NCBI GenBank assembly: GCA_017552435.1
Contig: JAFZPZ010000071.1
Span: 1 to 64,000, forward strand
Length of the DNA stretch: 64,000 nt
Origin: Bacteroidaceae bacterium
GTDB lineage: Bacteria; Bacteroidota; Bacteroidia; Bacteroidales; Bacteroidaceae
Reading direction: 5' to 3'
Below, piece by piece: positions 3,123 through 62,660 of the stretch. The first letter of the stretch is position 1; every line of letters begins with the position of its first letter. The notes beneath the pieces are model-generated. The model worked only from the letters and a program-made list of their open reading frames with translations, was not told where the DNA came from and did not search any database. The position numbers and the translations under genes were made by a program.

Positions 3123-4140
3123 ACGTTTTCATGAAGCCGAGAGCAGAGGCCGAACTTGTTCGGACTATGCCGAGGCAAGGAAAAGGTGGGATGCAATCCA
3201 AATTCAGAAGTTCCGCGACCTTCCCATCGAGGGGGTCGCAGAGCGACTTGGGCTCCGGGTCGAGCGCCACAAATGCCTCTGTCCCTTCCACGACGACCAC
3301 CACGCCAGTTTGTCGTTCAAGAACAATAAGTTCAAGTGCTGGAGCTGTGGGGAAAACGGAGACACTATAAGCCTCGCCATGAAAGTGCTCGGGAAGGACT
3401 TCAAGGATGCCTGCCGTTGGCTTGCCGACGAAAATAACATAATCCTGACCGAGTATAAGCCAAAGGAGACGAAGCCAGCCAAGCCCTTCGATGCCAAGTA
3501 CTATGCAAGATTCTTCGAGCATCCTTGGTTGAGTGAAGCTGCCCGAAAGTTTCTCTTCGAGGAAAGGAAGCTGGACGAGCGTGTGGTGCGCTGGTGCCGC
3601 TTGACTTCGTGGCGCGACCGGCAGGGCATCAACTGGCTCCAGATACCCTACTATGACCGCGAAGGTAAGTTGATAGGTATTCAGAACCGCAATTTAGGAC
3701 CCTCTAAATCTCCCTTAAAGGGAGACTTTCTCTCCTCCCCCTTTGGGGGAGGCTGGGAGGGGGCTGCCCCTCGTTTCCGCTTCCCACGCGGCTCTGAGTG
3801 CAGCATTTACAACCTGCCAGTGCTGAACCTGCTGAAGCCCGGCGAGGCACTCTTCATCACCGAAGGCTGCTCCGACTGCTGGGCAATGCTCTCCTCCGGC
3901 CACAAAGCCATCGCCATCCCCTCGGCAACCCTGCTCAAACCCAAAGACGTGGAGCAATTGTCAATTATCAATTCTCAATTGTCAATTACTTTTCACATGT
4001 ACCCCGACAACGATGCCGCAGGGGAAAGCCTCTACAGACAGCTGCTCTCCGCCGCTTGCAAGGCAGGCTTCTGCCTCATTCGCCACAACCTGCCCGACGG
4101 CTGCAAGGACTTCTCCGACTATTGGGCAGCCAAAGCGTAA
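3106..4140 (+). CDS. CHC2 zinc-finger / Toprim primase-like protein with two in-frame repeat insertions
   Basis: About 344 residues. A DnaG-like zinc ribbon is visible near residues 60-90: CLCPFHDDHHASLSF then KCWSCGENGD. A Toprim domain follows, with EGCSDCWAM near residue 255 and YPDNDAAGE near residue 302, giving the acidic metal-binding residues (E; DND). The start at 3106 is chosen because GGAGG at 3092-3096 is 9 nt upstream; ATG 3100 is the alternative. Two repeats are read in frame: a GC-rich palindrome at 3711-3767 (peptide SPLKGDFLSSPFGGGWEG) and a heptamer array at 3955-3988 (peptide LSIINSQLSI), both between conserved blocks. The stop codon lies inside a GTAACC repeat. It would make RNA primers for the island, with the coupled ATPase upstream. 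Confidence 0.75.
   Translation: MRNSIERFHEAESRGRTCSDYAEARKRWDAIQIQKFRDLPIEGVAERLGLRVERHKCLCPFHDDHHASLSFKNNKFKCWSCGENGDTISLAMKVLGKDFKDACRWLADENNIILTEYKPKETKPAKPFDAKYYARFFEHPWLSEAARKFLFEERKLDERVVRWCRLTSWRDRQGINWLQIPYYDREGKLIGIQNRNLGPSKSPLKGDFLSSPFGGGWEGAAPRFRFPRGSECSIYNLPVLNLLKPGEALFITEGCSDCWAMLSSGHKAIAIPSATLLKPKDVEQLSIINSQLSITFHMYPDNDAAGESLYRQLLSAACKAGFCLIRHNLPDGCKDFSDYWAAKA
3711..3767. repeat. GC-rich palindromic repeat inside the primase-like gene
   Basis: Contains CTCCCTTAAAGGGAG followed by CTCCCCCTTTGGGGGAGG and then CTGGGAGGGGGCT. It is read in frame without a stop, adding about 19 residues in a loop between the zinc ribbon and the Toprim domain. Confidence 0.8.
3955..3988. repeat. Heptamer array inside the primase-like gene
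   Basis: Units AATTGTC, AATTATC, AATTCTC, AATTGTC, AATT in tandem, period exactly 7. The array is translated as QLSIINSQLSI between two strands of the Toprim domain. Confidence 0.85.
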
Positions 4141-4174
4141 CCGTAACCCGTAACCACACAAAAACATATATATA
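4135..4174. repeat. Half element: GTAACC array plus ATATATA
   Basis: GCGTAACCGTAACCCGTAAC, then CACACAAAAACATATATATA. This matches one terminus of the element at 664-876. The first TAA is the stop codon of the primase-like gene, and the AT stretch ends five bases before the DUF5675 start. Confidence 0.75.
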
Positions 4175-4178
4175 CATT

Positions 4179-4550
4179 ATGCAAATACTTCTTCACCGAC
4201 ACCGTATCAACGAGATCGCCTGCGACGGCACCCTCACAATCGACGACACCCGCATCTGCGACACCACCGAAAACGCCCGGTACCGCGTCCCTGCAGGCAC
4301 TTACCGCATCGCCCTCAGGTACAGCAGCATACATAGCCGCAAAGTACCAGTTCTCGTGGAAAAGCCCAGCGTATGCCTCGCCATCGGCAACGGCATCTGG
4401 AACCGCACCGACGGCCGCATCCTCACCGGCACCCGCATCGCCCCCGGCTGCGTCAAGCAAAGCCGCGAACCATTCATGCAGCTCTACAACCGCATCAATG
4501 CCTCCCTCCGCCGCCACCACGAAGTGACAATCAAAATCACAGAAGACTGA
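4179..4550 (+). CDS. DUF5675 family protein
   Basis: A 123-residue protein beginning MQILLHRHRINEIACDGTL. The pattern is that of DUF5675: an opening HRxxxNE, GTLTIDDTRICDTTE, YRVPAGTYRIALR, then GNGIWNRTDGRILTGTRIAP and a final SREPFMQLYNRI. In Bacteroidales and phages this family sits in small accessory clusters; its activity is not established to my knowledge, though the sequence pattern is similar to phage-encoded enzymes of cell-wall modules. There is no signal peptide. It is the last gene of the helicase/primase unit, 38 nt after the primase stop, and is followed directly by a strong terminator at 4562-4595. Confidence 0.75.
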   Translation: MQILLHRHRINEIACDGTLTIDDTRICDTTENARYRVPAGTYRIALRYSSIHSRKVPVLVEKPSVCLAIGNGIWNRTDGRILTGTRIAPGCVKQSREPFMQLYNRINASLRRHHEVTIKITED

Positions 4551-4561
4551 AAAAGCCAGAG

Positions 4562-4657: not shown

Positions 4658-4675
4658 CAAAGCAGAATGTGTGTT

Positions 4676-6557: not shown

Positions 6558-6600
6558 GCGTAACCGTAACCCGTAACCGCCCAAAAACAAACACATATAT
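6558..6600. repeat. Half element: GTAACC array plus ATATATA
   Basis: GCGTAACCGTAACCCGTAAC then CGCCCAAAAACAAACACATA. Nearly identical to the copies at 4135 and 857-876 (inverted). No second inverted end is seen nearby. Confidence 0.7.
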
Positions 6601-15557: not shown

Positions 15558-16910
15558 TCAGGAGCTTCTATCCCAAGAGAGTTTAAGGATGTGGGTGGTT
15601 CCCTCGGTGACGCGGTAACGATTGTCGCTTCGATGACCGATGAGCCAAATGATATCGTCCCCGCAAGTGGCAACGAACTGCTGAGCCTTCTCCAGTCGGT
15701 TCACCTTGCGGTCGGTCAAGTAATCGCTTACCAACTTCCTTCCCTTCATGCCGAAGGGTACAAAGGCATCGCCCTCGCGAACGGGACGCACTTCAATGGG
15801 GGCTGTCAGCAGATCTGCGTCAAAATAGGCGATGTCTGGGCCAGTCTCGGTGATGGAAGGTACTATCTCTTCATTAATTGACAATTGATAATTGACAATT
15901 GACAATGAGCGGGGAGCGAGTATCAGATTATCGCGGTCGCGGAGGACGGTGTGGGTGTGAGAGTGCCACATCTTGCCGACACTATTTCCATCTGCGCGAA
16001 GCATCTCTGCTTCCTGAGTGGCATTGAAGCCTTTGCCTGCAAGCCATTCGTGGAGTAATGGATTAGGGATTAGGGAATAAGGATTAGAGATTAAGGCCGA
16101 CAGCGGAAATCTTTCCTCTGTGATGCCAAGTTCCTGAAAAGCTGCCTCTATACCTTTTATATAATATGGCAGGCTTTGGCGCATGTTGTCGCAGGCAAGA
16201 ACGAGGTGCTCGACGGCTGCAGGATTGATGCTTTGGAGCAAAGGAATGACATCGAGACGAATGCGGTTACGTTGTGCGATGCGTTCGGAATTGGTGCTGT
16301 CGGTGACGTAGGGCTGTCCCTTTTGCTCGAGGTATTGCAGAATTTCTTCACGGCTCAGGCAAAGGAGCGGACGTATGATGCTGTCGTGCTTGGGCTGCAT
16401 CCCGGCTAAACCGCGCAACCCTGTGCCACGAAGCAGGTTGAGCAGCAGTGTCTCTGCCTGATCGTCACGATGATGGGCGACGGCGATGAAAGATTGGTCG
16501 TTTAGGAAATTGGTCGTTTGGTCGTTTGGGAAGAGTTTGAATTTTGAATTTTGAATTTTGAATTGTTTTAGCTCTTCCTGGAACCAGGTGTAGCGAAGGT
16601 CGCGGGCTGCCATCTCGATGCTGATGCCGCGCTGCTTCGACTCTTCTTCCGTTTGGAAGTGGCGCACACGCAAAGGCACATTCTGCTGACGACAGAGTTC
16701 CTCGACAAAAGCTTGGTCGCGGTCGGACTCTGCACCTCGCAAATGGAAGTTGCAATGCAGCGCCTCAACCATGTAACCCAGTTCCTTCATGATGAGCAAA
16801 AGAGCTGTAGAGTCGGCACCACCACTAAGCGCAATAAGAATATAAGACCCGGCTTCAAGCCCTATTTCCCGCTCGATATATGCACGAACCTTATTAATCA
16901 CATTCTTCAC
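15558..16910 (-). CDS. tilS: tRNA(Ile)-lysidine synthase with three in-frame heptamer arrays
   Basis: 450 residues from a GTG start at 16910, which overlaps the recN stop as GTGA. TilS converts C34 of tRNA-Ile(CAU) to lysidine. The PP-loop SGGADSTALLL lies near residue 30, HCNFHLRGAESDRD near 52, and VAHHRDDQAETLLLNLLRGT near 145. The C-terminal domain contains EVRPVREGDAFVPFGMKGRK. Three repeat arrays are translated: residues about 115-139 (QFKIQNSKFKLFPND region), 272-283 (LISNPYSLIPNPLL) and 334-346 (SLSIVNYQLSIN). All lie between conserved blocks, so the enzyme should be active. This gene is essential in most bacteria, which argues that the insertions are tolerated. Confidence 0.95.
   Translation of the reverse strand: MKNVINKVRAYIEREIGLEAGSYILIALSGGADSTALLLIMKELGYMVEALHCNFHLRGAESDRDQAFVEELCRQQNVPLRVRHFQTEEESKQRGISIEMAARDLRYTWFQEELKQFKIQNSKFKLFPNDQTTNFLNDQSFIAVAHHRDDQAETLLLNLLRGTGLRGLAGMQPKHDSIIRPLLCLSREEILQYLEQKGQPYVTDSTNSERIAQRNRIRLDVIPLLQSINPAAVEHLVLACDNMRQSLPYYIKGIEAAFQELGITEERFPLSALISNPYSLIPNPLLHEWLAGKGFNATQEAEMLRADGNSVGKMWHSHTHTVLRDRDNLILAPRSLSIVNYQLSINEEIVPSITETGPDIAYFDADLLTAPIEVRPVREGDAFVPFGMKGRKLVSDYLTDRKVNRLEKAQQFVATCGDDIIWLIGHRSDNRYRVTEGTTHILKLSWDRSS
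15871..15908. repeat. Heptamer array in tilS, AATTGAC type
   Basis: Five units related to ACAATTG with period 7. Read on the minus strand as SLSIVNYQLSIN. Confidence 0.85.
16060..16095. repeat. Heptamer array in tilS, GGATTAG type
   Basis: Units GGATTAG, GGATTAG, GGAATAA, GGATTAG, AGATTAA. Read on the minus strand as LISNPYSLIPNP. Confidence 0.85.
16492..16565. repeat. Double heptamer array in tilS, TTGGTCG and TTTGAAT types
   Basis: A TTGGTCG/TTTGGTCG block is followed by four exact TTTGAAT units. Two different arrays lie side by side and are both read in frame. Confidence 0.85.
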
Positions 16911-18586: not shown

Positions 18587-18591
18587 AGTTC

Positions 18592-18625
18592 ATAGTTATA
18601 ATTCATAGTTCATAGTTCATTCTTC
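18592..18625. repeat. Heptamer array between mfd and recN
   Basis: Units CATAGTT, CATAGTT, ATAATT, CATAGTT, CATAGTT, CATTCTT. It contains the mfd stop codon and fills the whole intergenic spacer. Confidence 0.8.
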
Positions 18626-21600
18626 ACTCTTTTCAGCAGGTCAACTGCTTCTTTGATGGTACTGACGTCGTCGATGAGGAGGCTCCTCTTGCCCTTGTCT
18701 TGCTTGAAGTGGCAACGGTGGGCATTGGCTGTGGCAAAATCCACAATCTGCCCGAAGATGCGCCCATCGTAGAAGGGATTGTCGTCATCTGGACCGAAGA
18801 AGAGCCTTGCATGACTGGCCTTTAGGACGATGCGCTCGCAGCCGAAATGTTTGCCGAGACGGCGAAGGGTGACAACCCTCAGCAGGTCTTCTGCCTCCTG
18901 CGGCAGCGGGCCGAAACGGTCTATCATACGCTGGCGGAACCGCTCCACATCCTCGTCGCGCTCCATCCCGTCCAGTTCGCGGTAGAGAAGCATGCGCTCG
19001 CTGCTTGTCGGCACATAGTCCTCGCTGAAGTACATGGGCAGATTGCTATCGAGTTGGCAATCATCTACCACCTCCGTACTCTCCACGATGTTGCCCTCGC
19101 GCACCTCTTCGGCATAGAGTTCGTGGAACTCTTCGTTGCGCAGTTCGGTGACAGCTTGCGAGAGAATCTTCTGATAGGTCTCGTAGCCGAGGTCGGCGAT
19201 GAAGCCGCTCTGTTCGGCACCCAGCAGGTTACCAGCACCGCGGATGTCGAGATCCTGCATGGCAATGTGGATGCCGCTGCCCAGGTCGCTGAAGTTCTCG
19301 ATGGCCTGCAGACGGCGACGCGCATCGAGGTTGAGGGCTGAGAGTGGAGGTGCCAGCAGGTAACAGAACGCCTTCTTATTCGAGCGCCCTACCCGACCAC
19401 GCATCTGGTGCAGGTCGCTCAGGCCGAAGTTATGCGCTCCGTTTATGATAATGGTATTGGCATTCGGGATGTCCAGGCCGCTCTCGATGATGGTGGTGGA
19501 GATGAGGACATCGTAGTCGTAGTTGGTAAAATCAACCATGATCCGCTCCAGCTCCTCGGGCGGCATCTGTCCGTGAGCCACAGCGACGCGGGCATCGGGC
19601 ACATGCTTGCGGACCAGTTCGGCCAGTTCCGGCAGTTGGCTGATGCGGTTGTTCACAAAAAATACCTGTCCGCTGCGGCTCATCTCGAACTCGATGGCTT
19701 CGGCAATCACCTCGGCGCTGAAACAGCAGAGTTGCGTTTGTATCGGGTACCGGTTGGGCGGCGGTGTCTGTATGACGCTCAGGTCGCGGGCTCCCATCAG
19801 GCTGAACTGCAAGGTGCGGGGGATAGGCGTAGCCGTCAGCGTGAGGGTATCGACGTTGGTCTTCAGCTGACGCAGTTTCTCCTTTGTCGAGACGCCGAAC
19901 TTCTGCTCCTCGTCGATGATGAGCAGACCCAGGTCCTTGAACTTGACGCTCTTGCCGATGAGCTTGTGGGTGCCGATGATGATGTTGACCGAGCCGTTCT
20001 TCAGACCCTCCAGAATCTCTTTCGTCTTCTGGGGCGAGCGGGCACGGGTCAGGTATTCTATCTTGACGGGGAAATCCTTCAGGCGGCTCGTAAAGGTGCG
20101 GAAGTGCTGATAGGCCAGCACCGTGGTCGGCACGAGTACTGCCACCTGTTTGTTATCGACACATGCCTTGAAGGCGGCCCGGATGGCCACTTCCGTCTTG
20201 CCGAAGCCCACGTCGCCGCAGACCAGGCGGTCCATCGGGCGCTGGCGTTCCATATCCAGCTTGACGTCCTGCGTAGCCTTCAGCTGGTCGGGCGTGTCCT
20301 CATATAGGAAACTGGCTTCCAACTCGTGTTGCATGAAGCTGTCGTGACTGAAGGCGAAGCCCTTCTCCTCGCGACGGCGGCTATAGAGCAGAATCAGGTC
20401 GCGGGCAATGTCCTTGATCTTCTTCTTCGTGCGCTCCTTCATGCGCTCCCAGGCGCCGGTGCCGATGTGGCTGATGCGTGGCGGCTCGCCCTCTTTGCCC
20501 TTGTATTTCGAGACCTTGTGCAGGCTGTGGATAGAGACATAGACGGTGTCGTCGCCCGAGTAGATGATCTTGATGACCTCCTGCATCTGGTCGCCGTTCT
20601 GCATTCGCACCAGGCCGCCGAAGCGCCCCACACCGTAGTCGATATGCACCACATAGTCGCCCACCTCGAACTGTTGCAGCTCCTTCAGCGTCAGCGCCAC
20701 CTTACCGCCCATCGCGCGTTCGCTGCGCAGGTTGTATTTGTGGTAGCGGTCGAATATCTGGTGGTCGGTGAAGAAGGCCACGTGCAGGTCGTCGTCGCTG
20801 AAGCCGGCGTGCAGGGCGTGGTCAACAGGCGTGAACTGGATGCCTGTCTCCTTGTCGTGGAAGATGCTCTCCAGGCGGTCCGTCTGCTTCTGGCTGTCGG
20901 CCAGGATATAGAGGTCGGTCCCCTCGTCCTGAAGCTTCTTGAAAGCATCGATGAGCAGGTCGAAGTTCTTGTGGAATACCGGCTGGGGATGAGTGTTGAA
21001 CTGGATTAGGGAATAGGGATTAGGGATTAGGGTTGGGGATGGCTTTAGCTCGATGCGGCGGAAGTCAAGAATCTGCTTCCTGAACTCCTCCGGGTTGACT
21101 AACAGTAACTCCGGAGACAAGATTGTTTCTCCCCCTAAAGGGGGTTGGGGGGTCTGGGTCTCCTGCTCCACTATCGCCGACTGGCTGAAGCCCTCGTTGT
21201 AGGTCTGTTCCACCATGTCGCACAGGAACACCAGGTCCTTCACAACCATGATGGTATTCTCCGGCAGGAACTTCAAAAAGGTTTCAACCCCACGGCCTTT
21301 TACTCCCCCTAAAGGGGGTTGGGGGGTCCTTAGTTCTGGCACTATCGAGATGCTCTGCTGCCTGTCGCGGCTCAGCTGGCTATGCACCTCGAAGGTGCGG
21401 ATGCTATCCACCTCGTCGCCAAAGAAGTCGATGCGGTAAGGCAGTTCGCACGAGTAGGAATAGACGTCGATGATGCTGCCGCGCACAGCGAACTGCCCGG
21501 GCTCATAGACATAGTCGGTGCGGTGGAAGCCGTAGCTGAGCAGAGTCTCCTGAACGAACATGATATCCACGTGCTCCCCTACCCCCAGCGTCAGCGTCTG

Positions 21601-22131
21601 TTCGCAGAGCTTCTGCTTGGTGACAACCAGTTCGCAGAGTGCCTGCGGATGGGTGACAATATACATTGAACATTGAGCATTGAACATTGAGTCCTGCCCT
21701 TTAGTATTTGCAGACATCTCTTCTGATGTCGAATGGTCAATGGTCAATGGTGAATGGTCAATGAGTCTTGACAGCACCTCGGTGCGGAGAATCTCCTGCC
21801 CAGCGTTGCGCTGCCCGAACTTGATGGCGCGTTTGTAGCTGCTTGGAAAGAAGAGCACCTGCTCCTCGCCCAGCAAGCGTGTCAGGTCGTGGTAGAAATA
21901 GCCCGCCTCCTCCTCGTCATCGAGCACAAAGACATAGGGAACGTTCAATAGCTGCGGAGCCTTCACAGCCAGAGCAGCAAACACCAGCGGCGCACTGCTC
22001 CCCTGCAAACCCGAAAGCTGTATAACTCCACCTAAAGGGGGCTGGGGGGTCCAGGTCTTCCCTATTGCTGCCGCCAGGGCCTTCACACCCGGGTGCTTGG
22101 CAAAGATGCTCTGTAGTTTCTGTATCTCCAT
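18610..22131 (-). CDS. mfd: Transcription-repair coupling factor with six in-frame repeat insertions
   Basis: 1173 residues. Mfd pushes stalled RNA polymerase off DNA and recruits UvrA. The N-terminal UvrB-like part is followed by the RNA-polymerase-interacting module (VGDYVVHIDYGVGRFGGLVR near residue 500), the RecG-like motor with Walker A DVGFGKTEVAIRAAF near 645 and DEEQKFGV near 745, QMRGRVGRSNKKAFCYLL near 910, and the C-terminal regulatory domain. Three GC-rich palindromes give TPQPPLGG at residues about 27, 267 and 326. Three heptamer arrays give inserts at about 123-134, 147-156 and 365-376. All six are in the N-terminal third, away from the motor. A promoter is at 22149-22156; recN and tilS follow. 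Confidence 0.97.
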   Translation of the reverse strand: MEIQKLQSIFAKHPGVKALAAAIGKTWTPQPPLGGVIQLSGLQGSSAPLVFAALAVKAPQLLNVPYVFVLDDEEEAGYFYHDLTRLLGEEQVLFFPSSYKRAIKFGQRNAGQEILRTEVLSRLIDHSPLTIDHSTSEEMSANTKGQDSMFNAQCSMYIVTHPQALCELVVTKQKLCEQTLTLGVGEHVDIMFVQETLLSYGFHRTDYVYEPGQFAVRGSIIDVYSYSCELPYRIDFFGDEVDSIRTFEVHSQLSRDRQQSISIVPELRTPQPPLGGVKGRGVETFLKFLPENTIMVVKDLVFLCDMVEQTYNEGFSQSAIVEQETQTPQPPLGGETILSPELLLVNPEEFRKQILDFRRIELKPSPTLIPNPYSLIQFNTHPQPVFHKNFDLLIDAFKKLQDEGTDLYILADSQKQTDRLESIFHDKETGIQFTPVDHALHAGFSDDDLHVAFFTDHQIFDRYHKYNLRSERAMGGKVALTLKELQQFEVGDYVVHIDYGVGRFGGLVRMQNGDQMQEVIKIIYSGDDTVYVSIHSLHKVSKYKGKEGEPPRISHIGTGAWERMKERTKKKIKDIARDLILLYSRRREEKGFAFSHDSFMQHELEASFLYEDTPDQLKATQDVKLDMERQRPMDRLVCGDVGFGKTEVAIRAAFKACVDNKQVAVLVPTTVLAYQHFRTFTSRLKDFPVKIEYLTRARSPQKTKEILEGLKNGSVNIIIGTHKLIGKSVKFKDLGLLIIDEEQKFGVSTKEKLRQLKTNVDTLTLTATPIPRTLQFSLMGARDLSVIQTPPPNRYPIQTQLCCFSAEVIAEAIEFEMSRSGQVFFVNNRISQLPELAELVRKHVPDARVAVAHGQMPPEELERIMVDFTNYDYDVLISTTIIESGLDIPNANTIIINGAHNFGLSDLHQMRGRVGRSNKKAFCYLLAPPLSALNLDARRRLQAIENFSDLGSGIHIAMQDLDIRGAGNLLGAEQSGFIADLGYETYQKILSQAVTELRNEEFHELYAEEVREGNIVESTEVVDDCQLDSNLPMYFSEDYVPTSSERMLLYRELDGMERDEDVERFRQRMIDRFGPLPQEAEDLLRVVTLRRLGKHFGCERIVLKASHARLFFGPDDDNPFYDGRIFGQIVDFATANAHRCHFKQDKGKRSLLIDDVSTIKEAVDLLKRVKNEL
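21003..21036. repeat. Heptamer array in mfd, GGATTAG type
   Basis: Units GGATTAG, GGAATAG, GGATTAG, GGATTAG, period 7. Translated on the minus strand as SPTLIPNPYSLIQ. It is the same unit as one of the tilS arrays. Confidence 0.85.
21129..21154. repeat. GC-rich palindromic repeat in mfd, copy 1
   Basis: CTCCCCCTAAAGGGGGTTGG then GGGGTC. Translated on the minus strand as TPQPPLGGE. Confidence 0.85.
21303..21329. repeat. GC-rich palindromic repeat in mfd, copy 2
   Basis: Identical core to the copy at 21129. Translated as TPQPPLGGV. Confidence 0.85.
21663..21691. repeat. Heptamer array in mfd, ATTGAAC type
   Basis: Units ATTGAAC, ATTGAGC, ATTGAAC, ATTGAG. Translated on the minus strand as SMFNAQCSMY. 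Confidence 0.85.
21731..21765. repeat. Heptamer array in mfd, GGTCAAT type
   Basis: Units GGTCAAT, GGTCAAT, GGTGAAT, GGTCAAT. Translated on the minus strand as LIDHSPLTIDHS. Confidence 0.85.
22026..22052. repeat. GC-rich palindromic repeat in mfd, copy 3
   Basis: CTCCACCTAAAGGGGGCTGG then GGGGTCC, the same variant as at 421-446. Translated as TPQPPLGGV near the N-terminus of Mfd. Confidence 0.85.
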
Positions 22132-23035: not shown

Positions 23036-23071
23036 AAAAAGTGAAAAATGAAAAGTGAAAAGTGAAAAATT
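23036..23071. repeat. Heptamer array between tRNA-Thr and mltG
   Basis: Units AAAAGTG and AAAAATG alternating, period 7, four to five copies, in the divergent promoter region. Confidence 0.75.
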
Positions 23072-28178: not shown

Positions 28179-28186
28179 ACACTTTT

Positions 28187-28229
28187 AATTCATAATTATT
28201 AATTCTTAACTCTTAATTCTTAATTTCTT
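28187..28229. repeat. Heptamer array in a divergent promoter region
   Basis: Units TTAATTC, TTAACTC, TTAATTC in tandem, directly upstream of the -7 box at 28232-28239. Confidence 0.75.
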
Positions 28230-42264: not shown

Positions 42265-42308
42265 TGGTTGATAAGACCGGGTTATTGCCTCTGTAAAAGT
42301 TGCTTCGG

Positions 42309-42502
42309 ATGACAGATGACAGATGACAGTTTCTATATGAGCCCCTACCACCGCGAGAGGAGGGAAATTATACATTATTAATTATATTTTTAGTTATTTA
42401 TATAAGTATAATAATATATATATAATAGTATATATAGTAGAGTATTTCCTTTTTTCCGCATAGGGGGTGTCCATATATAAACTGTCATCTGTCATTTGTC
42501 AT
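42309..42502. mobile_element. AT-rich MITE-like element bounded by inverted ATGACAG arrays
   Basis: The left end is three ATGACAG units followed by TTTCTATATGAGCCCC. The right end is the inverted counterpart: GGGGGTGTCCATATATAAA then CTGTCAT, CTGTCAT, TTGTCAT. The core is almost pure A/T, about 100 bp. The architecture (heptamer array, TATATA, short C-run, AT-rich core, mirror image) is the same as at 664-876, though the sequences differ. It lies between the transporter gene and the beta-helix gene and encodes nothing. Confidence 0.6.
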
Positions 42503-45151: not shown

Positions 45152-46644
45152 TGAATAAAAAGATTATATTCTTCATGCTATTGACAGCAATCGTCAGTGG
45201 CCTTCAAGCGCAAGAGATTGTAAGTCTGCCCGTACTAAGGGTCAACTTCGAAGGAAAATTCAAAAAGAAAATGGACTATGTATTTGGCCAGATGCAGCTG
45301 ACCGATACTGATGGTACTATCATTGAAATGCCGGCCAAATTCAAAACACGTGGGGCTACAGCCATGTCCTATATGATGAAACCGTCGTTCAACATGAAAC
45401 TGCGTACAGCAGACGACTCTGAAGAGGTTGACTCCGCTCTGCTGGGTATGCGTTCGTGCTCATCGTGGATTCTGGATGCAATGGCTATCGACCGCATCTG
45501 CATGCGCAACCGTGTGGCCTTTGATATCTGGAATGAATTCTCGCGTCTGCCATACGATACAGAATTCGATGAGCGAAATGGAACCGAAGGACGCTTCCTT
45601 GAGGTCTATATCAACGACAAGTACCACGGAATCTATTGCATGAGCGACCGCATCAACCGCAAGCTGCTGAACCTGAAAAAGGTACAGGAAAACGAGGAGG
45701 ACGGCTCCGTGCTCGTTCGCGGTGTACTCTACAAAAGCGGGACAAGCAGCATTTCCAACCAAAACGAGCCCAGCTTTAACGCAGATTCCACGGCCTGCGT
45801 CGTCTCGTGGCACAATGCCTGGGAACTGTCATATCCCGAAGACTACGGCGGGATGACCGCATGGCAACCACTATTGGATGCATTTGCAGTGGGCAAAACA
45901 ACCGACTACGTCAAGAAGTACTTCTATCTCGAGAACCTGGCCGACTACCAGATACACGTAATGGCACTCTCCATCGGTGACAACTGGGGTAACAAGAACC
46001 ACTTCCTTTCCATACGCAACATCAACAAGGACATCGACGACTCAGATATCACACAAGCTTGGCGACGACGCTTTGTCATCACGCCGTGGGATCTCGACAC
46101 CAGTCTGGGAGGCGGTTACGACGGAAGGTACTACGATGGAAACTATGCTGTCTGGCCTGTCGCCGATATTGGCAAAAATGCGCTCTACCCCATTTCGGCC
46201 ATAAGTGGGGATGCGGAATACCAGGAAATATTGAAACGACGCTGGATGGAGGGCCGCACAGGTGCCTTCTCCCTGACATCCCTCAAATCCAAACTGGAGG
46301 GTTACCGCGACCTTTTCCTGAAGAGCGGTGCATGGCAGCGTATGGTGAATCACTTCGATGCCCAAAGCAGCAAACCGAAATATGTCTCCGACCTGACACA
46401 CGAAATTGAATGCATCGAGGCTTGGTACGTCGATCGCTTATATGAAATGGATGCCTATTTCGGTCTAACGGAAACAGACACAGACGGCATCGATGAAATT
46501 AAGAGTGAAGAATTAAGAATGAAGAATGAGGGTGCTATTTACGACCTCAGCGGCAGGCAAATCGTAAATAGTAAATCGTCAAATCGTAAATTGCCACGGG
46601 GTCTCTATATCCAAAACGGCAAGAAAGTCTTTATTCAGCAGTGA
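45151..46644 (+). CDS. Secreted CotH kinase family protein
   Basis: 497 residues, signal peptide MNKKIIFFMLLTAIVSGLQA. CotH features: FKTRGATAMSYMMKPSFNMKL near residue 65, DRICMRNRVAFDIWNEFSRLP, RFLEVYINDKYHGIYCMSDR near 150, and the DxD block FVITPWDLDTSLGGGYDG near 310. CotH proteins are atypical kinases that phosphorylate proteins outside the cytoplasm. The tail IYDLSGRQI...KLPRGLYIQNGKKVFIQQ is the shared secretion tail; two repeat arrays (46499-46536 and 46560-46592) are translated at its start and middle. It is coupled to the EEP gene. The 3' end overlaps the opposite CotH gene by 14 nt. Confidence 0.85.
   Translation: MNKKIIFFMLLTAIVSGLQAQEIVSLPVLRVNFEGKFKKKMDYVFGQMQLTDTDGTIIEMPAKFKTRGATAMSYMMKPSFNMKLRTADDSEEVDSALLGMRSCSSWILDAMAIDRICMRNRVAFDIWNEFSRLPYDTEFDERNGTEGRFLEVYINDKYHGIYCMSDRINRKLLNLKKVQENEEDGSVLVRGVLYKSGTSSISNQNEPSFNADSTACVVSWHNAWELSYPEDYGGMTAWQPLLDAFAVGKTTDYVKKYFYLENLADYQIHVMALSIGDNWGNKNHFLSIRNINKDIDDSDITQAWRRRFVITPWDLDTSLGGGYDGRYYDGNYAVWPVADIGKNALYPISAISGDAEYQEILKRRWMEGRTGAFSLTSLKSKLEGYRDLFLKSGAWQRMVNHFDAQSSKPKYVSDLTHEIECIEAWYVDRLYEMDAYFGLTETDTDGIDEIKSEELRMKNEGAIYDLSGRQIVNSKSSNRKLPRGLYIQNGKKVFIQQ
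46499..46536. repeat. Heptamer array in the CotH gene, AAGAATG type
   Basis: Units AAGAGTG, AAGAATT, AAGAATG, AAGAATG. Translated as KSEELRMKNE just before the C-terminal tail. Confidence 0.8.
46560..46592. repeat. Heptamer array inside the C-terminal tail of CotH
   Basis: Units GTAAATA, GTAAATC, GTCAAATC, GTAAATT. Translated as VNSKSSNRKL between the two halves of the secretion tail. Confidence 0.7.
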
Positions 46645-49600: not shown

Positions 49601-49675
49601 GCAGCTGCGTTGAGCCCAGCTTCTGCTTGCCGCAAGCAGAAGCCCAATAAACATTAACCAAGAACCTTTAACCAT
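46631..49675 (-). CDS. Secreted CotH kinase fused to a DUF4353-like carbohydrate-binding domain
   Basis: 1014 residues. The signal peptide core MFIGLLLAASRSWAQ is preceded by MVKGSWL, which comes from an AACATTAACC-type repeat; the natural start may be the second Met. The CotH part spans about residues 130-600: RTRLRGATTGSQPKQSLNIEL, FGRMRNRVLMDLWTAVDRLP, FVEVFMNGGYYGMYCFTDKID, and FLFTLWDLDGSIGRLAGG with DxD. From about 650 a beta-helical DUF4353-like part follows (QIIFDGAEVFIKGNMEGF, VTIEDGQIYFMMTGSGTL, INGGFTFTSSLTNDGTDSKG). A fusion of kinase and glycan-binding domain suggests phosphorylation of a surface-bound substrate. It lies next to a paralogous binding protein with the same signal peptide. 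Confidence 0.85.
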   Translation of the reverse strand: MVKGSWLMFIGLLLAASRSWAQRSCGLWLNEVPLVADTVGGTIYATIEPGIGHALKGTLRWDESMHRGVTLGDVPLENGKQGNLEVPDWSMNATNTITIENDENRQWTLRFSTLPFVVIDCPLKEMKSTYSMTKGTEGHYIKFPGYISVIDARCRTKLKDSDLRGMACFNSEIRTRLRGATTGSQPKQSLNIELVKDGESQDAHLLGYRKDDDWILSAEYLDFGRMRNRVLMDLWTAVDRLPYGTDNRYQCNGTQGEFVEVFMNGGYYGMYCFTDKIDRKKLNLKKTKEATETSPEVKRGLLWKANWECSETYLGGYDTLPANDSFLWPYKESKGTYGWDQKYPGDTVTQAFFDPICHLIDFFDSKEFGTDYPDWLYEQNVIDFILFIQAFQLIDNQKKNYYLSVRNYDKEEKFLFTLWDLDGSIGRLAGGTPSGKDPKQMAWGEKLGYHHMIHVFKTKKLRPDGFSTKMNNRWQYLTTHELSLQNVRALMEKYANLFVTSGAWEREKARWIPTYKKDNVKISDTPQEEVEFMMSFLEENYAIFNQKMASDNWIHDEYNEDEYVRENSSKALYIIGNDVTSKHEDCTVTMTGSVQQELVDGITNIDYRDGRMIVVREDREQDYDMDDIKEVKTTHSGIYPTPAFVPDSLRYVFDFDTRYAPVTSSIPINEAGEASSFDVQRTIQIIFDGAEVFIKGNMEGFVAAVDGASVSLATELEGVEILLDGRSEEGKVCIESLHPCKIAAAEGGTMLSSITADCDLTINTSYALNFYNGEFDGKCIYTTGDVTIEDGQIYFMMTGSGTLTDASFPKNPELGARAVLANNINVNGGSLYIKTLGHNGAVGLAAIKKLIINGGHNYIATYDDPMKIGSDLTINGGFTFTSSLTNDGTDSKGSIHMNDGFICSCGPEGAEAAFDVKNFTCNGGTVIGMGFKSDQPKADKSKQAFFRLDHYKGVKRYVKIVDADGNELRVLETQAYDTQTILYSSPLLQKGSIYTLLTGDTLDALEELTTITAE
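49615..49645. repeat. Palindrome inside the signal-peptide coding region
   Basis: CTTCTGCTTG-CCG-CAAGCAGAAG: 10-bp arms around three bases. Almost the same palindrome lies at 51617-51639 in the neighbouring gene, at the same place in its signal peptide. Confidence 0.65.
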
Positions 49676-49700
49676 TAATCCCTAATCTCTAATCCTTACT
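49660..49700. repeat. Heptamer arrays across a gene start
   Basis: AACATTAACC/ACCATTAATC and TAATCCC/TAATCTC units between the two DUF4353-like genes. They include the first codons of the 49675 gene. Confidence 0.7.
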
Positions 49701-51671
49701 CTTCTTGCTTCCCAATGTGATGAATTTCTCTTCTATCTTCTCGAGGTACTCTTCTTCCATAGAGAAATCATACTCGACCACAGGAACATCATCGAACGAG
49801 TCCTTGTAGCTGAGAATCTTGTATCTTTTACCCACCTGGATCTGGTCGTTGGAAACGAGAAGACAGAGGACAGGATACGTGTTGGGCGTAGGGAACTGCG
49901 TGATGATATTCCCTTCGGCATCTGCCACAGCCACGCCGCTGCAATAGGTCTCGGGCAGGTAGAAACAGACACTGGCCTGGGAGCAGGTTCCGTGAGGAGT
50001 ACAGCTGCGGGCTCCCACGCCGATAATCTCACCTCCATATATCTCGAAGGTCTTCCCGTCGGTATCTATACCCATCTGCTGTTCACCGCTACCCACGCCA
50101 TACAGCGTTCCGTTAAATATTTTAAGGCTGCTTGCATCAAGGCCGTCGTTCTCGGAACTGCAGACAAAGATATCTCCGTCGTTAATCAGACATCCTGTGC
50201 AGTTCATGCCGTCGTCGGTGCAATAGCTGCGTATCTTACCGCCATAGATGTCGATACGCTTCTTCGACTCCAAGCCCTCGGCAGCACCGCCGCCGGAACC
50301 CCGGACATAGATGTTGCCGGAATTGATGGCCATATTATTGATACACTTGATGCACTTGGGCGAGGCCGATGCGCCTACCTTATGGCCATGACCGTCCTCT
50401 TCCTTTTTCTCCGGGATACGCGTGCCGGTGGTACGGACATAGATATCGGCACCGGCAATAGTGAGACCGCCGTTGTAGTATTTCTTCGTTTTATCATTCA
50501 CGATAGTCTCCAGATAGTGACCCGCACTGATGCCCTTGCCGCCTGTTCCGGTCGAGAGGCAATAAATCTCGCCTCCGCTGATGGTCATGTCCCACGCGCT
50601 CTTGATGCCGCAGCACGAGCTGTAGTCCTCTTCGTCGTCATCCCATACGGCATCGCCATTGGTAATGGCCTTGATGACACCGCCTGTAATCGAGAGCAGC
50701 GAGTCGGAGGCAACGCCTTTGCCTGCCTCACCGTCGCAGTAAGTTCTCAGCACGCCGCCGCCCACGATGACATTGTCCTTGCCATAGACGCCCTTACCTT
50801 TCTGAGCATGAGCGTTGACATGGACAAAGCCGTCAAGGAGATGCACATAGTCGTCAGAGGCAATGCCGCACTTCTTGTTGCCGTTCACATACAGCTCTCC
50901 GCGCCCCGAGATGCAGATCTTGCCCTCGGCAAAGATGCAGCCGCGCTGGTCCTCGCCTTTCACCTTCGTGTATTTAGAGCCATCCGTCAGGGTATTGACC
51001 GTATTGTCTGCCAATTCTATAAACAGGCGCTTTTTCAGCTGACTGTTGATGACCGGGCCCTGGGGATTGGTGAGGTTCACGCCGTTCAACACCAGACAGG
51101 CTTTATGGCCGCTGTAGAGTTTGAGGCACGCATCCTCGCTGCTGCCCGAGACAATGTATTTCAGTCCTGCTGTAGTCGTCTCTATCGTGAGATGCGCACC
51201 CTCCTGAGTCACTGACAGAGAGTCGGTATCGCCCGTTATGGTCACGTCGGTTCCGTCGAAGACGATACGGACTGTCTTGGTCCATGTACTGTGCGTCAGG
51301 AAGTCGTCGTAGAATTTGCTGGTCTCATCCGTCACCTCCGGCTCTGCCTTCACACGCTCCTTGTCGGCATCCTCGAAGGCGATGTCATAGTCGAAGTCGG
51401 CAAGGTAGCGCTCCGGCATCACCTTAGTCCGCCACGGGTCTTTCTCGGCGAGACTCATTTTCCCTACCGCAGAGGCATCGAAGCTACAGGGGGTATCGCC
51501 GCTCCATAGTGTCGCACCCTCCGGAGCGAAATCAATCTTGTTCACACCATTGACGATGCGTACCCGATTGTAGCCGTTGAAGTCCTCGTTGATATAGACA
51601 TTACGTTGCGCCCAACTGCTGCTTGCCGCAAGCAGAAGCCCGATAAACATTGACCATTGAATATTGACCAT
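49689..51671 (-). CDS. Secreted DUF4353-like carbohydrate-binding protein
   Basis: 660 residues. The signal peptide MFIGLLLAASSSWAQRN is preceded by residues MVNIQWS that derive from ATTGACC heptamers. Repeated coils of a beta-helix with FDGTDVTITGD, LVLNGVNLTNPQGPVINSQL, RGCIFAEGKICISGRGEL, DGFVHVNAHAQKGKGVYGKD, GGVLRTYCDGEAGKGVAS, GGEIYCLSTGTGGKGIS, NSGNIYVRGSGGGAAEGLES and DGDIFVCSSENDGLDASSL are typical of the DUF4353 family, which is usually annotated as a carbohydrate-binding domain and accompanies CotH genes. The C-terminus has no secretion tail. It is directly upstream of the CotH fusion gene with 13 nt between them, so they form one unit. Confidence 0.8.
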   Translation of the reverse strand: MVNIQWSMFIGLLLAASSSWAQRNVYINEDFNGYNRVRIVNGVNKIDFAPEGATLWSGDTPCSFDASAVGKMSLAEKDPWRTKVMPERYLADFDYDIAFEDADKERVKAEPEVTDETSKFYDDFLTHSTWTKTVRIVFDGTDVTITGDTDSLSVTQEGAHLTIETTTAGLKYIVSGSSEDACLKLYSGHKACLVLNGVNLTNPQGPVINSQLKKRLFIELADNTVNTLTDGSKYTKVKGEDQRGCIFAEGKICISGRGELYVNGNKKCGIASDDYVHLLDGFVHVNAHAQKGKGVYGKDNVIVGGGVLRTYCDGEAGKGVASDSLLSITGGVIKAITNGDAVWDDDEEDYSSCCGIKSAWDMTISGGEIYCLSTGTGGKGISAGHYLETIVNDKTKKYYNGGLTIAGADIYVRTTGTRIPEKKEEDGHGHKVGASASPKCIKCINNMAINSGNIYVRGSGGGAAEGLESKKRIDIYGGKIRSYCTDDGMNCTGCLINDGDIFVCSSENDGLDASSLKIFNGTLYGVGSGEQQMGIDTDGKTFEIYGGEIIGVGARSCTPHGTCSQASVCFYLPETYCSGVAVADAEGNIITQFPTPNTYPVLCLLVSNDQIQVGKRYKILSYKDSFDDVPVVEYDFSMEEEYLEKIEEKFITLGSKKSKD

Positions 51672-51716
51672 TAATCCCTATTCTCTAATCCCTATTCCCT
51701 AATCTCTAATCCAACC
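51648..51716. repeat. Long heptamer array between two secreted-protein genes
   Basis: ATTGACC/ATTGAAT units followed by TAATCCC, TATTCTC, TAATCCC, TATTCCC, TAATCTC, TAATCC. One of the longest arrays in the window, with two unit types side by side. It covers the first codons of the 51671 gene. Confidence 0.85.
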
Positions 51717-61164: not shown

Positions 61165-61196
61165 AATATGTTAATTGTTAATACGTTAATCCGTTG
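61165..61196. repeat. Heptamer array before uxaA
   Basis: Units TTAATTG, TTAATAC, GTTAATCC; the TTG start codon of uxaA is directly at its end. Confidence 0.6.
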
Positions 61197-62660
61197 AAGC
61201 AGTTTCTTCAAATCAATCCCGCCGATACGGTGGCTGTTGCCCTGAAAGACCTTCCTAGCATTCCCGCTGGCCATAAGTTTGCCCTCCGCAACATCGCTGC
61301 TGGAGAGGACGTCATCAAGTACGGAAATCCCATCGGTCATGCCACCCGTGATATCCGCAAAGGTGAACTCGTGGATCATCATAACATCGCCACCAACCTT
61401 AGCGGAACGTTGGATTATAGTAGCCTCACCCCCGCCCCCTCTCCCGTGGGCGAGGGGAACCAAAAGGGTGAGGAAGAGGCCTTCTTCGGCGGCTACCCAC
61501 GCCCCGACGGACAGGTCGGCATCCGCAATGACATCTGGGTCATCCCGACTGTCGGTTGCGTAAATGGCATCTGCCGTCAAATCGTAGAAAAGGCAAAAGA
61601 ACAATTGTCAATTGTTAATTCTCAATTATCAATTAACTACTTCCCTCACAACTATGGCTGCTCCCAGCTCGGCGACGACCACGAGAACACGCGGCTTATT
61701 CTGCGAGATATGGTTTTGCACCCCAATGCCGGCGGCGTTCTCGTTGTGGGCCTGGGTTGCGAGAATAACCAGCCGCGTGAATTTGAGAAGCTGTTAGGCG
61801 ACTATGACCGCCAGCGCATCCGCTTTCTCATCTCACAGGAAGTGGAGGGCGACGAAGTGGAGGCCGGCGTGAAGATTGTCAAGGAACTCTATGAGCAAGC
61901 GCAAAAAGATGAGCGTGTGTCTGTACAGGTTAGTAAACTGCGTGTAGGTCTGAAGTGCGGCGGTTCCGACGGATTCTCCGGCATCACCGCCAACCCGCTC
62001 CTCGGTGCTTTCTCCGATTGGCTTTGTGAACAGGGCGGCACCACTATCCTGACAGAGGTGCCTGAGATGTTCGGGGCAGAACATCTGCTCATGCGTCGCG
62101 CCATCTCCGATGATGTCCTGCAGGACACCATCCGCCTCATCAACGACTTCAAAGAATACTACCTTCGTCACGGCCAGCCTGTCGGTGAGAACCCATCGCC
62201 CGGCAACAAGGCAGGTGGTATCTCCACCCTCGAAGAGAAAGCGCTCGGCTGCACACAGAAGTCTGGCACTTCGCCTGTTTGTGGCGTGCTTGCTTATGGA
62301 GAGAGACTTACCTCAGATTCTTCAGGCCTCCACCTCCTCTCCGCACCCGGCAATGACCTTGTGGCCTCAACGGCGCTCGCTGCTGCCGGTTGCCAGCTCG
62401 TTCTCTTCACCACCGGTCGCGGCACTCCTTTCTCCACTTTCGTGCCTACGCTGAAGGTCTCAACGAACAGCAATTTGGCCCGTCGCAAACCGCAATGGAT
62501 AGACTTCGATGCTGGTGTGCTTTTGGAAACCCAGACAATGGAAGAAACTCTGCAAGACTTCTGTCAACTAATTATTGACGTGGCGAACGGTCACCCCGTA
62601 CATGCCGAAAAGGCCGGAACATCAGAAATCTCAATCTGGAAGAATGGAGTAACGCTGTAA
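61194..62660 (+). CDS. uxaA: Altronate dehydratase with two in-frame repeat insertions
   Basis: 488 residues from a TTG at 61194; the preceding bases are a GTTAATT/GTTAATA heptamer array. It dehydrates D-altronate to 2-keto-3-deoxygluconate. The N-terminal SAF-type domain (residues 1-75, KQFLQINPADTVAVALKDLP) is followed, after a GC-rich repeat (LTPAPSPVGEGN, about residues 77-89), by the main domain GGYPRPDGQVGIRNDIWVIP, LVVGLGCENNQ, LRVGLKCGGSDGFSGITANP (Cys and Gly-Gly-Ser-Asp) and LFTTGRGTPFSTFVPTLKVS. A heptamer array gives QLSIVNSQLSI at 136-148. Both insertions lie at domain edges. It is the last gene of the operon and meets wbuC tail to tail. Confidence 0.92.
   Translation: MKQFLQINPADTVAVALKDLPSIPAGHKFALRNIAAGEDVIKYGNPIGHATRDIRKGELVDHHNIATNLSGTLDYSSLTPAPSPVGEGNQKGEEEAFFGGYPRPDGQVGIRNDIWVIPTVGCVNGICRQIVEKAKEQLSIVNSQLSINYFPHNYGCSQLGDDHENTRLILRDMVLHPNAGGVLVVGLGCENNQPREFEKLLGDYDRQRIRFLISQEVEGDEVEAGVKIVKELYEQAQKDERVSVQVSKLRVGLKCGGSDGFSGITANPLLGAFSDWLCEQGGTTILTEVPEMFGAEHLLMRRAISDDVLQDTIRLINDFKEYYLRHGQPVGENPSPGNKAGGISTLEEKALGCTQKSGTSPVCGVLAYGERLTSDSSGLHLLSAPGNDLVASTALAAAGCQLVLFTTGRGTPFSTFVPTLKVSTNSNLARRKPQWIDFDAGVLLETQTMEETLQDFCQLIIDVANGHPVHAEKAGTSEISIWKNGVTL
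61424..61460. repeat. GC-rich palindromic repeat in uxaA
   Basis: CTCACCCCCGCCCCCTCTCC then CGTGGGCGAGGGGAAC. Translated as LTPAPSPVGEGN. Confidence 0.8.
61601..61636. repeat. Heptamer array in uxaA, AATTGTC type
   Basis: Units AATTGTC, AATTGTT, AATTCTC, AATTATC, AATTAAC. Translated as QLSIVNSQLSIN. Confidence 0.85.

What the first reader, a model, noticed from the sequence alone, without database searches (positions are those of the whole stretch)
3955..61636. Some twenty tandem arrays with a constant 7-nt period but variable unit
Units such as AATTGTC, GGATTAG, ATTGAAC, GGTCAAT, CATAGTT, TTTGAAT, AAGAATG, TAATCCC and ATGACAG each form 3-6 tandem copies. The period is always 7, with the sequence homogeneous within an array and different between arrays. 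They lie in spacers (e.g. 18592, 23036, 28187, 51648, 61165) and inside genes. A constant period with changing sequence is unlike slippage of one motif and suggests a mechanism that copies the last seven bases, or repeated gain with local homogenisation. The nearest described parallel I know is the heptanucleotide STRR family of filamentous cyanobacteria.
Basis: partly seen in the sequence, partly recalled or inferred. Interest (0 to 1): 0.88.

Follow-up and report, generated by a model that had tools for sequence, protein, structure and literature searches.

The report
Seven-base DNA repeats sharing one grammar
A gut bacterium's genome is sprinkled with short runs of seven-base repeats that draw on a small shared vocabulary and, when they sit close together, usually face each other, which points to copying during DNA repair rather than ordinary copying slips.

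Summary
The lag-7 excess is real. The window holds 16 arrays at lag 7, 1 at lag 8 and none at lags 4-6 and 9-13; 805 kb of the same MAG (rumen Bacteroidaceae), window included, holds 167, against 0 at lag 5, 9 at lag 6 and 31 at lag 8.

An indifferent mechanism that copies the last seven bases is not supported. The arrays use a small dictionary: 31 distinct units in 82 arrays where 78 are expected. Units share a grammar, T-N-A-N-N-R-N, and copies within arrays vary least at those positions, also in held-out DNA. Of 26 adjacent pairs 19 face inward and 2 outward; sister species give 7 against 0. A relative with flanks about 95% identical lacks one facing pair: here 103 bases stand in place of about 25 ancestral ones, with no seed unit seen.

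Heptamer arrays are known in cyanobacteria, Xanthomonas, Beggiatoaceae and Geobacter, convergent pairs in Xanthomonas. New in what I read: dictionary, position test, polarity test, empty site. Best explanation: break-repair insertions primed by 3' ends copying existing arrays. The mechanism is unproven.

The parts
3955..3987 (-). heptamer array, unit TGACAAT (strand = strand bearing T-N-A-N-N-R-N)
15876..15906 (+). heptamer array TGACAAT inside the tilS-like gene 15558-16910(-)
   Evidence: at the orthologous place L001 has an array of another unit in the same polarity, 11 other relatives have none
16060..16093 (+). heptamer array TTAGGGA inside the same tilS-like gene
16536..16564 (-). heptamer array TCAAAAT (TTTGAAT), same gene; orientation call has a small margin
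18598..18631 (.). mosaic array TCATAGT>TCATTCT>TCACTCT in the spacer between a recN-like gene and mfd, reaching into the last mfd codons (TRF row 18584-18620); the two orientation rules used disagree
21003..21032 (+). heptamer array TTAGGGA in an mfd linker; same unit type in L011 and L021
21663..21690 (+). left arm of a convergent array pair in mfd, unit TGAACAT
   Evidence: absent from L021 and from all 31 loci compared
21691..21731 (.). 41-nt filler between the two arms
   Evidence: no other copy with up to 3 mismatches in the MAG
21732..21763 (-). right arm of the same pair, unit TGACCAT
23037..23068 (+). heptamer array TGAAAAG upstream of a yceG-like gene
25975..25993 (+). heptamer array TGACCAT in a 4-alpha-glucanotransferase gene
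28186..28225 (-). array TTAAGAA in the spacer between two divergent genes
42308..42329 (+). array TGACAGA, faces the array at 42482 (152 nt away, so not counted as a pair)
42482..42502 (-). array TGACAGA in inverse orientation
46501..46529 (+). array TGAAGAA inside a CotH-like gene
51648..51711 (.). two joined arrays, CATTGAC (51648-51672, in the coding start of gene 49689-51671(-)) and TAATCCC (51678-51711, in its 5' leader); a similar start lies at 49644-49695
   Evidence: the reading as a signal-peptide start is by eye
61165..61195 (.). mixed 7/8-nt array over the 29-nt spacer 61165-61193
   Evidence: period 8, 83% match, 8% indels; for the ORFs
61602..61635 (-). array TGACAAT/TGATAAT inside a galactarate dehydratase/altronate hydrolase-like gene

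Best explanation
The arrays are dispersed insertions made when DNA ends are repaired, copied from a genome-wide pool of similar arrays, and then reworked by unit gain, loss and exchange. Proposed steps: (1) a break or gap opens at a place that tolerates change (spacer, leader, protein loop). (2) Some ancestral bases are lost. (3) Each 3' end anneals by a few bases to an existing array elsewhere and is extended reiteratively, mostly making the T-N-A-N-N-R-N strand. (4) The two extended ends are joined, often with filler, leaving two arrays that face each other with related but rarely identical units. (5) Later exchange between arrays keeps a small dictionary. The period of 7 would be set by slippage on the template: 7 may be the shortest unit whose loop clears the polymerase (idea of Mrazek 2007, known to me only through MacGregor 2015 and Rehm 2015). 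Shown: a dictionary shared by unlinked sites, the grammar, the facing polarity, and one deletion-plus-insertion empty site. Inferred: the 3'-end priming, the template source, and why this strand and this length.
For: Dictionary: 31 distinct units in 82 arrays against 78.2 +- 1.9 expected from spacer heptamers; 72 of 85 held-out arrays use units of the first set; 131 of 195 single-difference copies are the unit of another array, expected 39, or 74 given the position. Grammar: within-array deviations are lowest at T0, A2 and R5 (p 2e-11; held-out p 6e-7), alike in arrays called genic and intergenic, which speaks for a making process rather than gene function. Polarity: 19 facing against 2 back-to-back pairs, also with an orientation rule taken only from 132 unpaired arrays; 7 against 0 in other species of the genus. 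Empty site: L021, L002, L020 and L001 share the ancestral stretch; this genome has 103 nt (array, filler, array) where L021 has 25, and I see no seed heptamer in the empty site. A few bases at both junctions (GAC, TGAC) match the units (by eye, not tested against chance). L006 keeps two arrays in the same polarity at the place of L073:19335-19430, but with other units. A flank, GCGG(T/C)AGCAAATTC, stands beside arrays of the TGAAGAG type at five sites.
Against: The filler of the one clear empty site has no second copy in the assembly, so its source is unseen. Only one gain is seen against a close relative. Five of 26 adjacent pairs are direct, and 132 of 183 arrays stand alone. In other species of the genus 2 of the 7 facing pairs rest on small orientation margins, and purine content alone gives 3 against 2 there. 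In other families 26 of 46 pairs are direct, the own-genome rule gives 11 against 9, and only the purine criterion shows polarity (16 against 5, p 0.027). The species comparison of dictionaries is small and mixed: G022 (3 arrays, all one unit) matches this genome at 0.024-0.082, as well as the genome matches itself. Sequence-biased local expansion could mimic part of the dictionary. No repair gene has been tied to it.
Confidence: 0.4

Rival explanations
1. Local replication slippage alone: any sequence that has by chance two copies of a heptamer expands, and 7 is favoured because of the polymerase footprint and because repair misses large loops.
For: Sharp onset at 7 with decline after it: 0, 9, 167, 31, 10, 2 arrays at lags 5-10. 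The footprint idea is in print (as told in MacGregor 2015, and Rehm 2015), and poor repair of large loops too (PMC4060949, passages). Unit and copy make-up differ between L007 and L012 at one shared array.
Against: Unit reuse far above chance, position-specific constraint, sharing of variants between sites, inward polarity and an empty site without a visible seed. Lag 11 is out of order (17 arrays).
Confidence: 0.15
2. REPIN-like dispersal by Y1 (HUH) transposases of the RAYT type: the arrays are non-autonomous elements moved as single strands.
For: Y1_Tnp in 38 of 40 array-rich against 10 of 37 array-poor Bacteroidales (Fisher p 4e-10; in 2.4-4.2 Mb genomes 28/30 against 8/24, p 4e-6). Control DDE_Tnp_1: 32/40 against 20/37, p 0.03. 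Inverted pairs and a population of near variants resemble REPINs (recalled). This MAG has a sub-threshold Y1 remnant at C5:36456-36617 (E 0.015, one stop).
Against: No Y1 at E<=0.001 in this MAG or in G137. Within the genus the 6 genomes with a strong Y1 (E<=1e-10) do not differ from the other 55 (median 170 against 130, p 0.59). Four Y1 loci of the genus (13.3 kb in all, a small sample) hold no lag-7 array, and all four have other inverted repeats of 28-53 nt on both sides of the gene.
Confidence: 0.15
3. A dedicated enzyme heals ends by adding heptamers to 3' ends, telomerase-like, from an RNA or protein template.
For: Facing polarity with the purine-rich strand growing 3' from both sides is what fused, end-extended breaks would give.
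Against: RVT_1 reverse transcriptases are not found at E<=0.001 in 18 of 40 array-rich genomes, including G105, the one with the highest counts. Some 42 units in one genome and different units in the two arms do not fit one template.
Confidence: 0.1
4. The arrays are kept by selection as binding sites or as leaders (regulatory heptamer repeats).
For: 47 of 102 array-to-start distances are within 15 nt (39 of 78 array-to-stop distances too); in same-direction spacers the T-N-A strand is sense in 42 and antisense in 18. MacGregor 2015 proposes translational control for TAACTGA.
Against: 75 of 167 arrays are called genic, on both strands, with the same position constraint. The stop-codon strand shows no bias (28 against 32). 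Orthologous intervals mostly lack an array (137 of 146 comparisons).
Confidence: 0.08

Closest known systems
GGGAATC / GGGGA(C/T)T heptamer repeats of Xanthomonas and Nostoc (Rehm et al. 2015, PMC4692102; passages and sections 10 and 16 read)
   Same: Heptamer arrays dispersed over the genome, most often four copies; variable positions in the unit; 70 (Xcc) and 75 (Xac) cases of two convergent arrays close together; no regulatory role identified. Rotated, GGGANTN reads TNGGGAN, close to T-N-A-N-N-R-N.
   Different: They searched for one G-rich unit and read it as quadruplex-forming, 7-11% in genes; here 42 distinct units, mostly AT-rich, in one genome, 45% in genes by my own gene calls, and a gain seen against an empty site.
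TAACTGA direct repeats of marine Beggiatoaceae, cyanobacteria and a few Bacteroidetes (MacGregor 2015, PMC4679880; abstract, sections 3 and 12, passages read)
   Same: Heptamer, 2-6 copies per set, many sites; rotated TGATAAC fits the grammar; other heptamer repeats noted in Bacteroidetes spacers, absent from the relatives compared.
   Different: One unit followed, mostly just upstream of start codons; related heptamers rare there.
Heptanucleotide elements of Geobacter metallireducens (PMC2700814; passages only)
   Same: Four tandem heptamers (GGGACCG) at 49 sites within and between genes; [quoted passage not shown]
   Different: Annotated as regulatory; no test of polarity or of empty sites in the passages seen.
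Long simple sequence repeats, heptamer class (Mrazek et al. 2007; not read, described in PMC4679880 and PMC4692102)
   Same: Heptamers the most abundant class in most genomes rich in longer repeats; slippage tied to polymerase footprint.
   Different: Does not, as described there, address unit sharing or polarity.
STRR of filamentous cyanobacteria (recalled; Rehm cites three heptanucleotides in Calothrix)
   Same: Several heptamers in one genome.
   Different: Other phylum; sequences not compared here.

Membership tests
Heptamer class of bacterial long simple sequence repeats | Period 7 in excess over neighbouring lags | tested here: met
Heptamer class of bacterial long simple sequence repeats | Patchy spread among genomes | tested here: met
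   the four counts range from all 0 to 614/460/447/566 (G105) in 295 genomes; 57 of 61 in the genus have a match
Convergent heptamer pairs as in Xanthomonas | Two arrays close together on opposite strands, purine-rich strand first | tested here: met
   19 against 2 here and 7 against 0 in sister species; not shown with the same rule in other families (11 against 9)
Convergent heptamer pairs as in Xanthomonas | G-rich unit able to form a quadruplex | tested here: not met
   by unit list only; the TTAGGGA type is 13 of 167
TAACTGA repeats | Unit TAACTGA | tested here: not met
   42 distinct units listed, none of them TAACTGA
REPIN / RAYT system | Palindromic REP with GTAG or CGTC head (from an abstract in the listing, and recalled) | tested here: not met
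   single arrays are not palindromes
REPIN / RAYT system | Cognate Y1 transposase in the genome | tested here: not met
   only a sub-threshold remnant; assembly 88% complete
REPIN / RAYT system | Inverted pair of elements | tested here: met
   21 of 26 adjacent pairs inverted, but 132 of 183 arrays unpaired
Telomere-like repeats made by telomerase | Reverse transcriptase in all bearers | tested here: not met
   RVT_1 in 22 of 40 rich genomes; divergent families not searched
Phase-variable contingency loci | Copy number varies among cells or strains and switches expression | not testable with these tools
   No strain set or reads; only one close relative (L021) at this locus
STRR of cyanobacteria | Unit sequences of the published STRRs | not tested
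   Nostoc plasmid record not held

The most novel reading that the evidence does not exclude
Many bacteria of unrelated phyla repair DNA ends by a polar, reiterative 3'-end extension that adds heptamers of one loose grammar (T-N-R-N-N-R-N) from both sides of a break, leaving facing arrays like fused chromosome ends, without any telomerase-type reverse transcriptase. The heptamer arrays of Bacteroidales, Xanthomonas, Geobacter, Beggiatoaceae and cyanobacteria would be scars of this one process.
Probability: 0.15. Interest if true: 0.92.

Novelty: new variant of a known kind. Interest (0 to 1): 0.66.

Why it matters
In the papers I read, the dominance of heptamers among longer bacterial simple repeats is left to a suggestion about polymerase footprint. 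Unit sharing across the genome, a positional grammar and inward polarity are features that a slippage-only account does not give and that can be checked in any genome collection. If the repair reading holds, these arrays record where and how broken DNA ends were joined, and they add new peptide loops to core proteins such as Mfd and TilS within one genus.

Tried and rejected
Stop-codon cassette: nearly every T-N-A core is a stop on one strand, but the stop strand shows no orientation bias in same-direction spacers (28 sense, 32 antisense). Rejected.

Ku-based end joining: Ku in 1 of 77 genomes. No association.

RVT_1 (telomerase-like or retroelement): 22 of 40 rich, 12 of 37 poor (my count, which had 80 genomes: the same 77 plus G344, G018 and G004, all three with a match). 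Not required.

Y1 transposase: strong across the order, no relation within the genus. Kept as a rival. The 40 rich and 37 poor genomes were picked by hand (sum of the four counts at least 150, and at most 1); others that meet the first cut (for example G269, G272, G303, G322, G238) were left out, and not every genome under the second cut was taken. They are not phylogenetically independent.

Transfer of the own-genome orientation rule to other families: no polarity (11 against 9, 26 of 46 pairs direct). Polarity there rests on purine content only (16 against 5, p 0.027), and in the sister species purine content gives 3 against 2.

Published heptamers against the grammar: TAACTGA, GGGAATC, GGGGATT, GGGGACT and GTGATTA all fit T-N-R-N-N-A-N, but 29% of random heptamers do so too; suggestive only. 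GGGACCG of Geobacter does not fit, by eye.

Shuffle control of the grammar: the real units had 25 restarts, the shuffled ones 6, which favours the real set a little; the within-array test does not depend on it. A refit on all 167 arrays gives 3.0, 5.2 and 3.2% deviation at the core positions against 5.7-12.8% elsewhere, a little weaker than the two separate sets.

Origin of the 41-nt filler: no second copy. Palindromes and arrays share neighbourhoods in 7 of 39 cases, 2.7 expected; weak.

Gene calls for strand tests are my own ORF scoring, not a standard gene finder; 23 of 75 'genic' arrays carry a stop core on the sense strand, so some genic labels are wrong. Stretches from other families were partly chosen on contigs where one search had listed matches, so their densities are not random samples.
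Full report
WHAT IS THERE. The window lies on contig C93 of a 3.5-Mb, 129-contig MAG, 88% complete. The nearest named relatives, found through Mfd, are rumen and gut Bacteroidaceae/Prevotellaceae MAGs; the HIP1 octamer of cyanobacteria is absent from the window. In the window, Tandem Repeats Finder gives 30 of 72 rows at period 7, and an X-drop scan gives 16 arrays at lag 7, 1 at lag 8 and none at lags 4-6 and 9-13. They hold 167 arrays at lag 7, against 0 at lag 5, 9 at lag 6, 31 at lag 8, 10 at lag 9, 2 at lag 10 and 17 at lag 11; five first-order Markov replicates give a mean of 0.2 at lag 7. Median length is 30 nt, about 4.3 copies.

NOT FREE SEQUENCE: A DICTIONARY. The first 82 arrays use 31 distinct units (rotation and strand ignored). 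Drawing 82 units from spacer heptamers gives 78.2 +- 1.9 distinct and a top count of about 2; the top count seen is 9. A second set of 380 kb, fetched afterwards, gave 85 arrays, of which 72 use units of the first set. Over both sets, five units make up 73 of 167 arrays. Among 195 array copies that differ from their own array's unit by one base, 131 equal the unit of another array; 39 are expected for a random change and 74 for a random change at the same position. Between species the data are thin: the chance that two arrays share a unit is 0.046-0.048 within this genome, 0.012-0.041 against G008 and G035 (5 and 6 arrays), 0-0.016 against G018 and G344 (12 and 7), 0 against G032 (4), but 0.024-0.082 against G022 (3 arrays, all one unit). 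Within one genome this looks like concerted change across unlinked sites.

A GRAMMAR. Aligning the 31 units by rotation and strand gives 4.86 bits, against 4.11 +- 0.16 (maximum 4.68 of 40) for letter-shuffled units, which had fewer restarts. The alignment reads T-N-A-N-N-R-N. As a separate test, copies within arrays deviate from their own consensus at 2.8% (T), 2.6% (A) and 2.6% (R) of sites in the three core positions, and at 5.4-14.2% in the others (p 2e-11). In the held-out set, with the register fixed from the first set, the same holds: 3.5, 1.2 and 4.7% against 6.4-10.6% (p 6e-7); a refit on all 167 arrays is a little weaker (3.0, 5.2 and 3.2% against 5.7-12.8%). The pattern is alike in arrays called genic and intergenic. 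A constraint that ignores reading frame, strand and gene context speaks for the way units are made or copied more than for what they do. Other families have other units: G158 keeps a T-N-A core, others less clearly.

POLARITY. Neighbouring arrays within 150 nt form 26 pairs (about 6 expected by chance): 19 have the T-N-A strand first and its complement second, 2 are the reverse, 5 are direct. To avoid circularity I took the orientation rule from the 132 unpaired arrays only: again 19 against 2. Without any rule, purine-then-pyrimidine pairs outnumber the reverse 14 to 2. In other species of the genus, with the rule from this genome, 7 against 0 of 10 pairs (5 against 0 with clear margins; purine content alone 3 against 2). 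In other families 26 of 46 pairs are direct, that rule gives 11 against 9, and the purine criterion gives 16 against 5, p 0.027. A wish for hairpins would accept both inverted orders, so polarity needs a strand-specific process. The two members share a unit in only 2 of the 26 pairs; in the rotation test 8 of 26 differ by at most one base.

GAIN AND TURNOVER. Of 167 arrays, 21 have an orthologous interval in a fetched relative. In the closest relative 17 have no array, 3 have an array of another unit in the same polarity, and 1 has the same unit; over all 146 comparisons 137 have none, 4 another unit in the same polarity, 3 another unit in the opposite polarity, 2 the same unit. The best case is in mfd. 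L021, a buffalo reticulum MAG, is 91-98% identical in the five aligned blocks of this region, about 95% in the 300-nt flanks. It shares with L002, L020 and L001 the ancestral stretch; between the aligned edges L021 has 25 nt and this genome 103 nt: array, 41-nt filler, array, facing inward, in frame. By eye nothing in the empty site resembles the units. This is deletion plus insertion, not slippage. At both junctions a few bases (GAC, TGAC) match the incoming unit; I did not test this against chance. In the same gene, another loop carries a CCCCCTTTAGGGGG palindrome here and a TTAGAGA array in L021, and different species carry different arrays, some of 8 nt, at the same few loops of Mfd. L007 and L012 (95.6% identical over 6.4 kb) share an array in one loop with other copy make-up, and have wholly different fillings in another. 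L006 keeps two facing arrays in the spacer orthologous to L073:19335-19430, with other units.

SPREAD. A pattern of four TGANNNN units and its mirror control were counted in 295 Bacteroidales: some genomes have none, others hundreds, G105 614/460/447/566. In the genus, 57 of 61 have at least one match, with sums of the four counts from 0 to 917. Fetched stretches from 20 other Bacteroidales and six sister species, partly chosen on contigs with listed matches, again put lag 7 first: 104 at lag 7 against 1, 14, 22, 23 and 5 at lags 5, 6, 8, 9 and 10.

WHICH GENES GO WITH IT. Among 40 rich and 37 poor genomes picked by hand, Y1 transposases (PF01797) occur in 38 and 10 (p 4e-10; still 28/30 against 8/24 at matched size); DDE_Tnp_1 in 32 and 20; RVT_1 in 22 and 12; Ku in 1 and 0. 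But Y1 is below threshold in this MAG, where only a remnant with one stop is seen, and within the genus the 6 genomes with a strong Y1 do not differ in array counts (p 0.59). The four Y1 loci looked at in the genus have inverted repeats of 28-53 nt on both sides of the gene, and no lag-7 array. So the Y1 link is open, and may mark genomes that tolerate dispersed repeats.

HOW IT MOST LIKELY WORKS. Shown: a vocabulary shared by unlinked sites, positional constraint, inward polarity, and one insertion with loss of ancestral bases. Inferred: at a broken end the 3' strand anneals to an array elsewhere and is extended again and again along it, mostly making the T-N-A-N-N-R-N strand; both ends do so; the ends are joined. 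Slippage on the template, with 7 as the shortest favoured unit, would set the period. Slippage alone (0.15), Y1-driven dispersal (0.15), a dedicated end-extending enzyme (0.1) and selection for function (0.08) are the rivals.

WHAT IS KNOWN. Heptamers as the leading class of longer bacterial repeats, and the footprint idea, are from Mrazek 2007 (not read; told in PMC4679880 and PMC4692102). TAACTGA arrays are described by MacGregor 2015, GGGAATC and GGGGA(C/T)T arrays by Rehm 2015, who report 70 and 75 convergent pairs in two Xanthomonas genomes, and heptanucleotide elements, one family at 49 sites, in Geobacter. A later survey (PMC4060949, passages) finds longer-unit repeats mostly normally or weakly over-represented across phyla. 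The eight paper searches made listed no paper on heptamer arrays in Bacteroidales beyond MacGregor's few Bacteroidetes; several listings were capped (for example 20 of 70 and 25 of 50 shown), and most subscription journals are not in that library. The kind is therefore known; the multi-unit dictionary, the position test, the polarity test and the empty site were not seen in what I read.

LIMITS. One MAG, sampled in parts; my own gene calls; one close relative; a hand-picked genome set; no strain series.

Noticed in passing
window 21131-21152 and 21305-21326 (a variant at 3737); 39 exact cores in 805 kb: A dispersed palindrome around CCCCCTTTAGGGGG, in spacers and in protein loops (it encodes TPQPPLGG at least twice in this Mfd and is absent there from L021).
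   Followed up: partly
window 18610-22131 (mfd) and 15558-16910 (tilS-like): Two core genes carry three heptamer arrays each; linkers of Mfd are lengthened or replaced between species.
   Followed up: partly
L134 16456-16617 (G000:C5:36456-36617): Sub-threshold Y1 transposase remnant with one stop; a TGAACAT-type heptamer array begins about 130 nt after it.
   Followed up: partly
L174 2738-2863 (G022): About 0.9 kb from a Y1 gene, an inverted pair of 11-nt repeats (CAGAAAATTAT), 97% complementary over 34 nt; 11 is also an over-used lag in this genome.
   Followed up: no
L168 4725-4821 and 5549-5639 (G241): Two facing TGAATTA array pairs enclose cores that by eye are near reverse complements of each other, so a short element with array ends may have spread there.
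   Followed up: no
window 46631-49675 and 49689-51671: Neighbouring genes (CotH-like; Cthe_2159-like) share nearly the same coding start, which looks like a signal peptide, and array-filled leaders.
   Followed up: no
window 665-683, 856-875, 4136-4155, 6559-6579: Four copies of CGTAACCGTAACCCGTAAC (6/7-nt mix), one in inverse orientation; perhaps related to a dispersed element with GGTTACGTAACTATGTAACC (L070 10769-10807, also L058 and L067).
   Followed up: no
window 22378-22461: Four 21-nt copies of a palindrome-like unit ATTTTCAAGGCTTGAAAATAT between mfd and tRNA-Thr.
   Followed up: no
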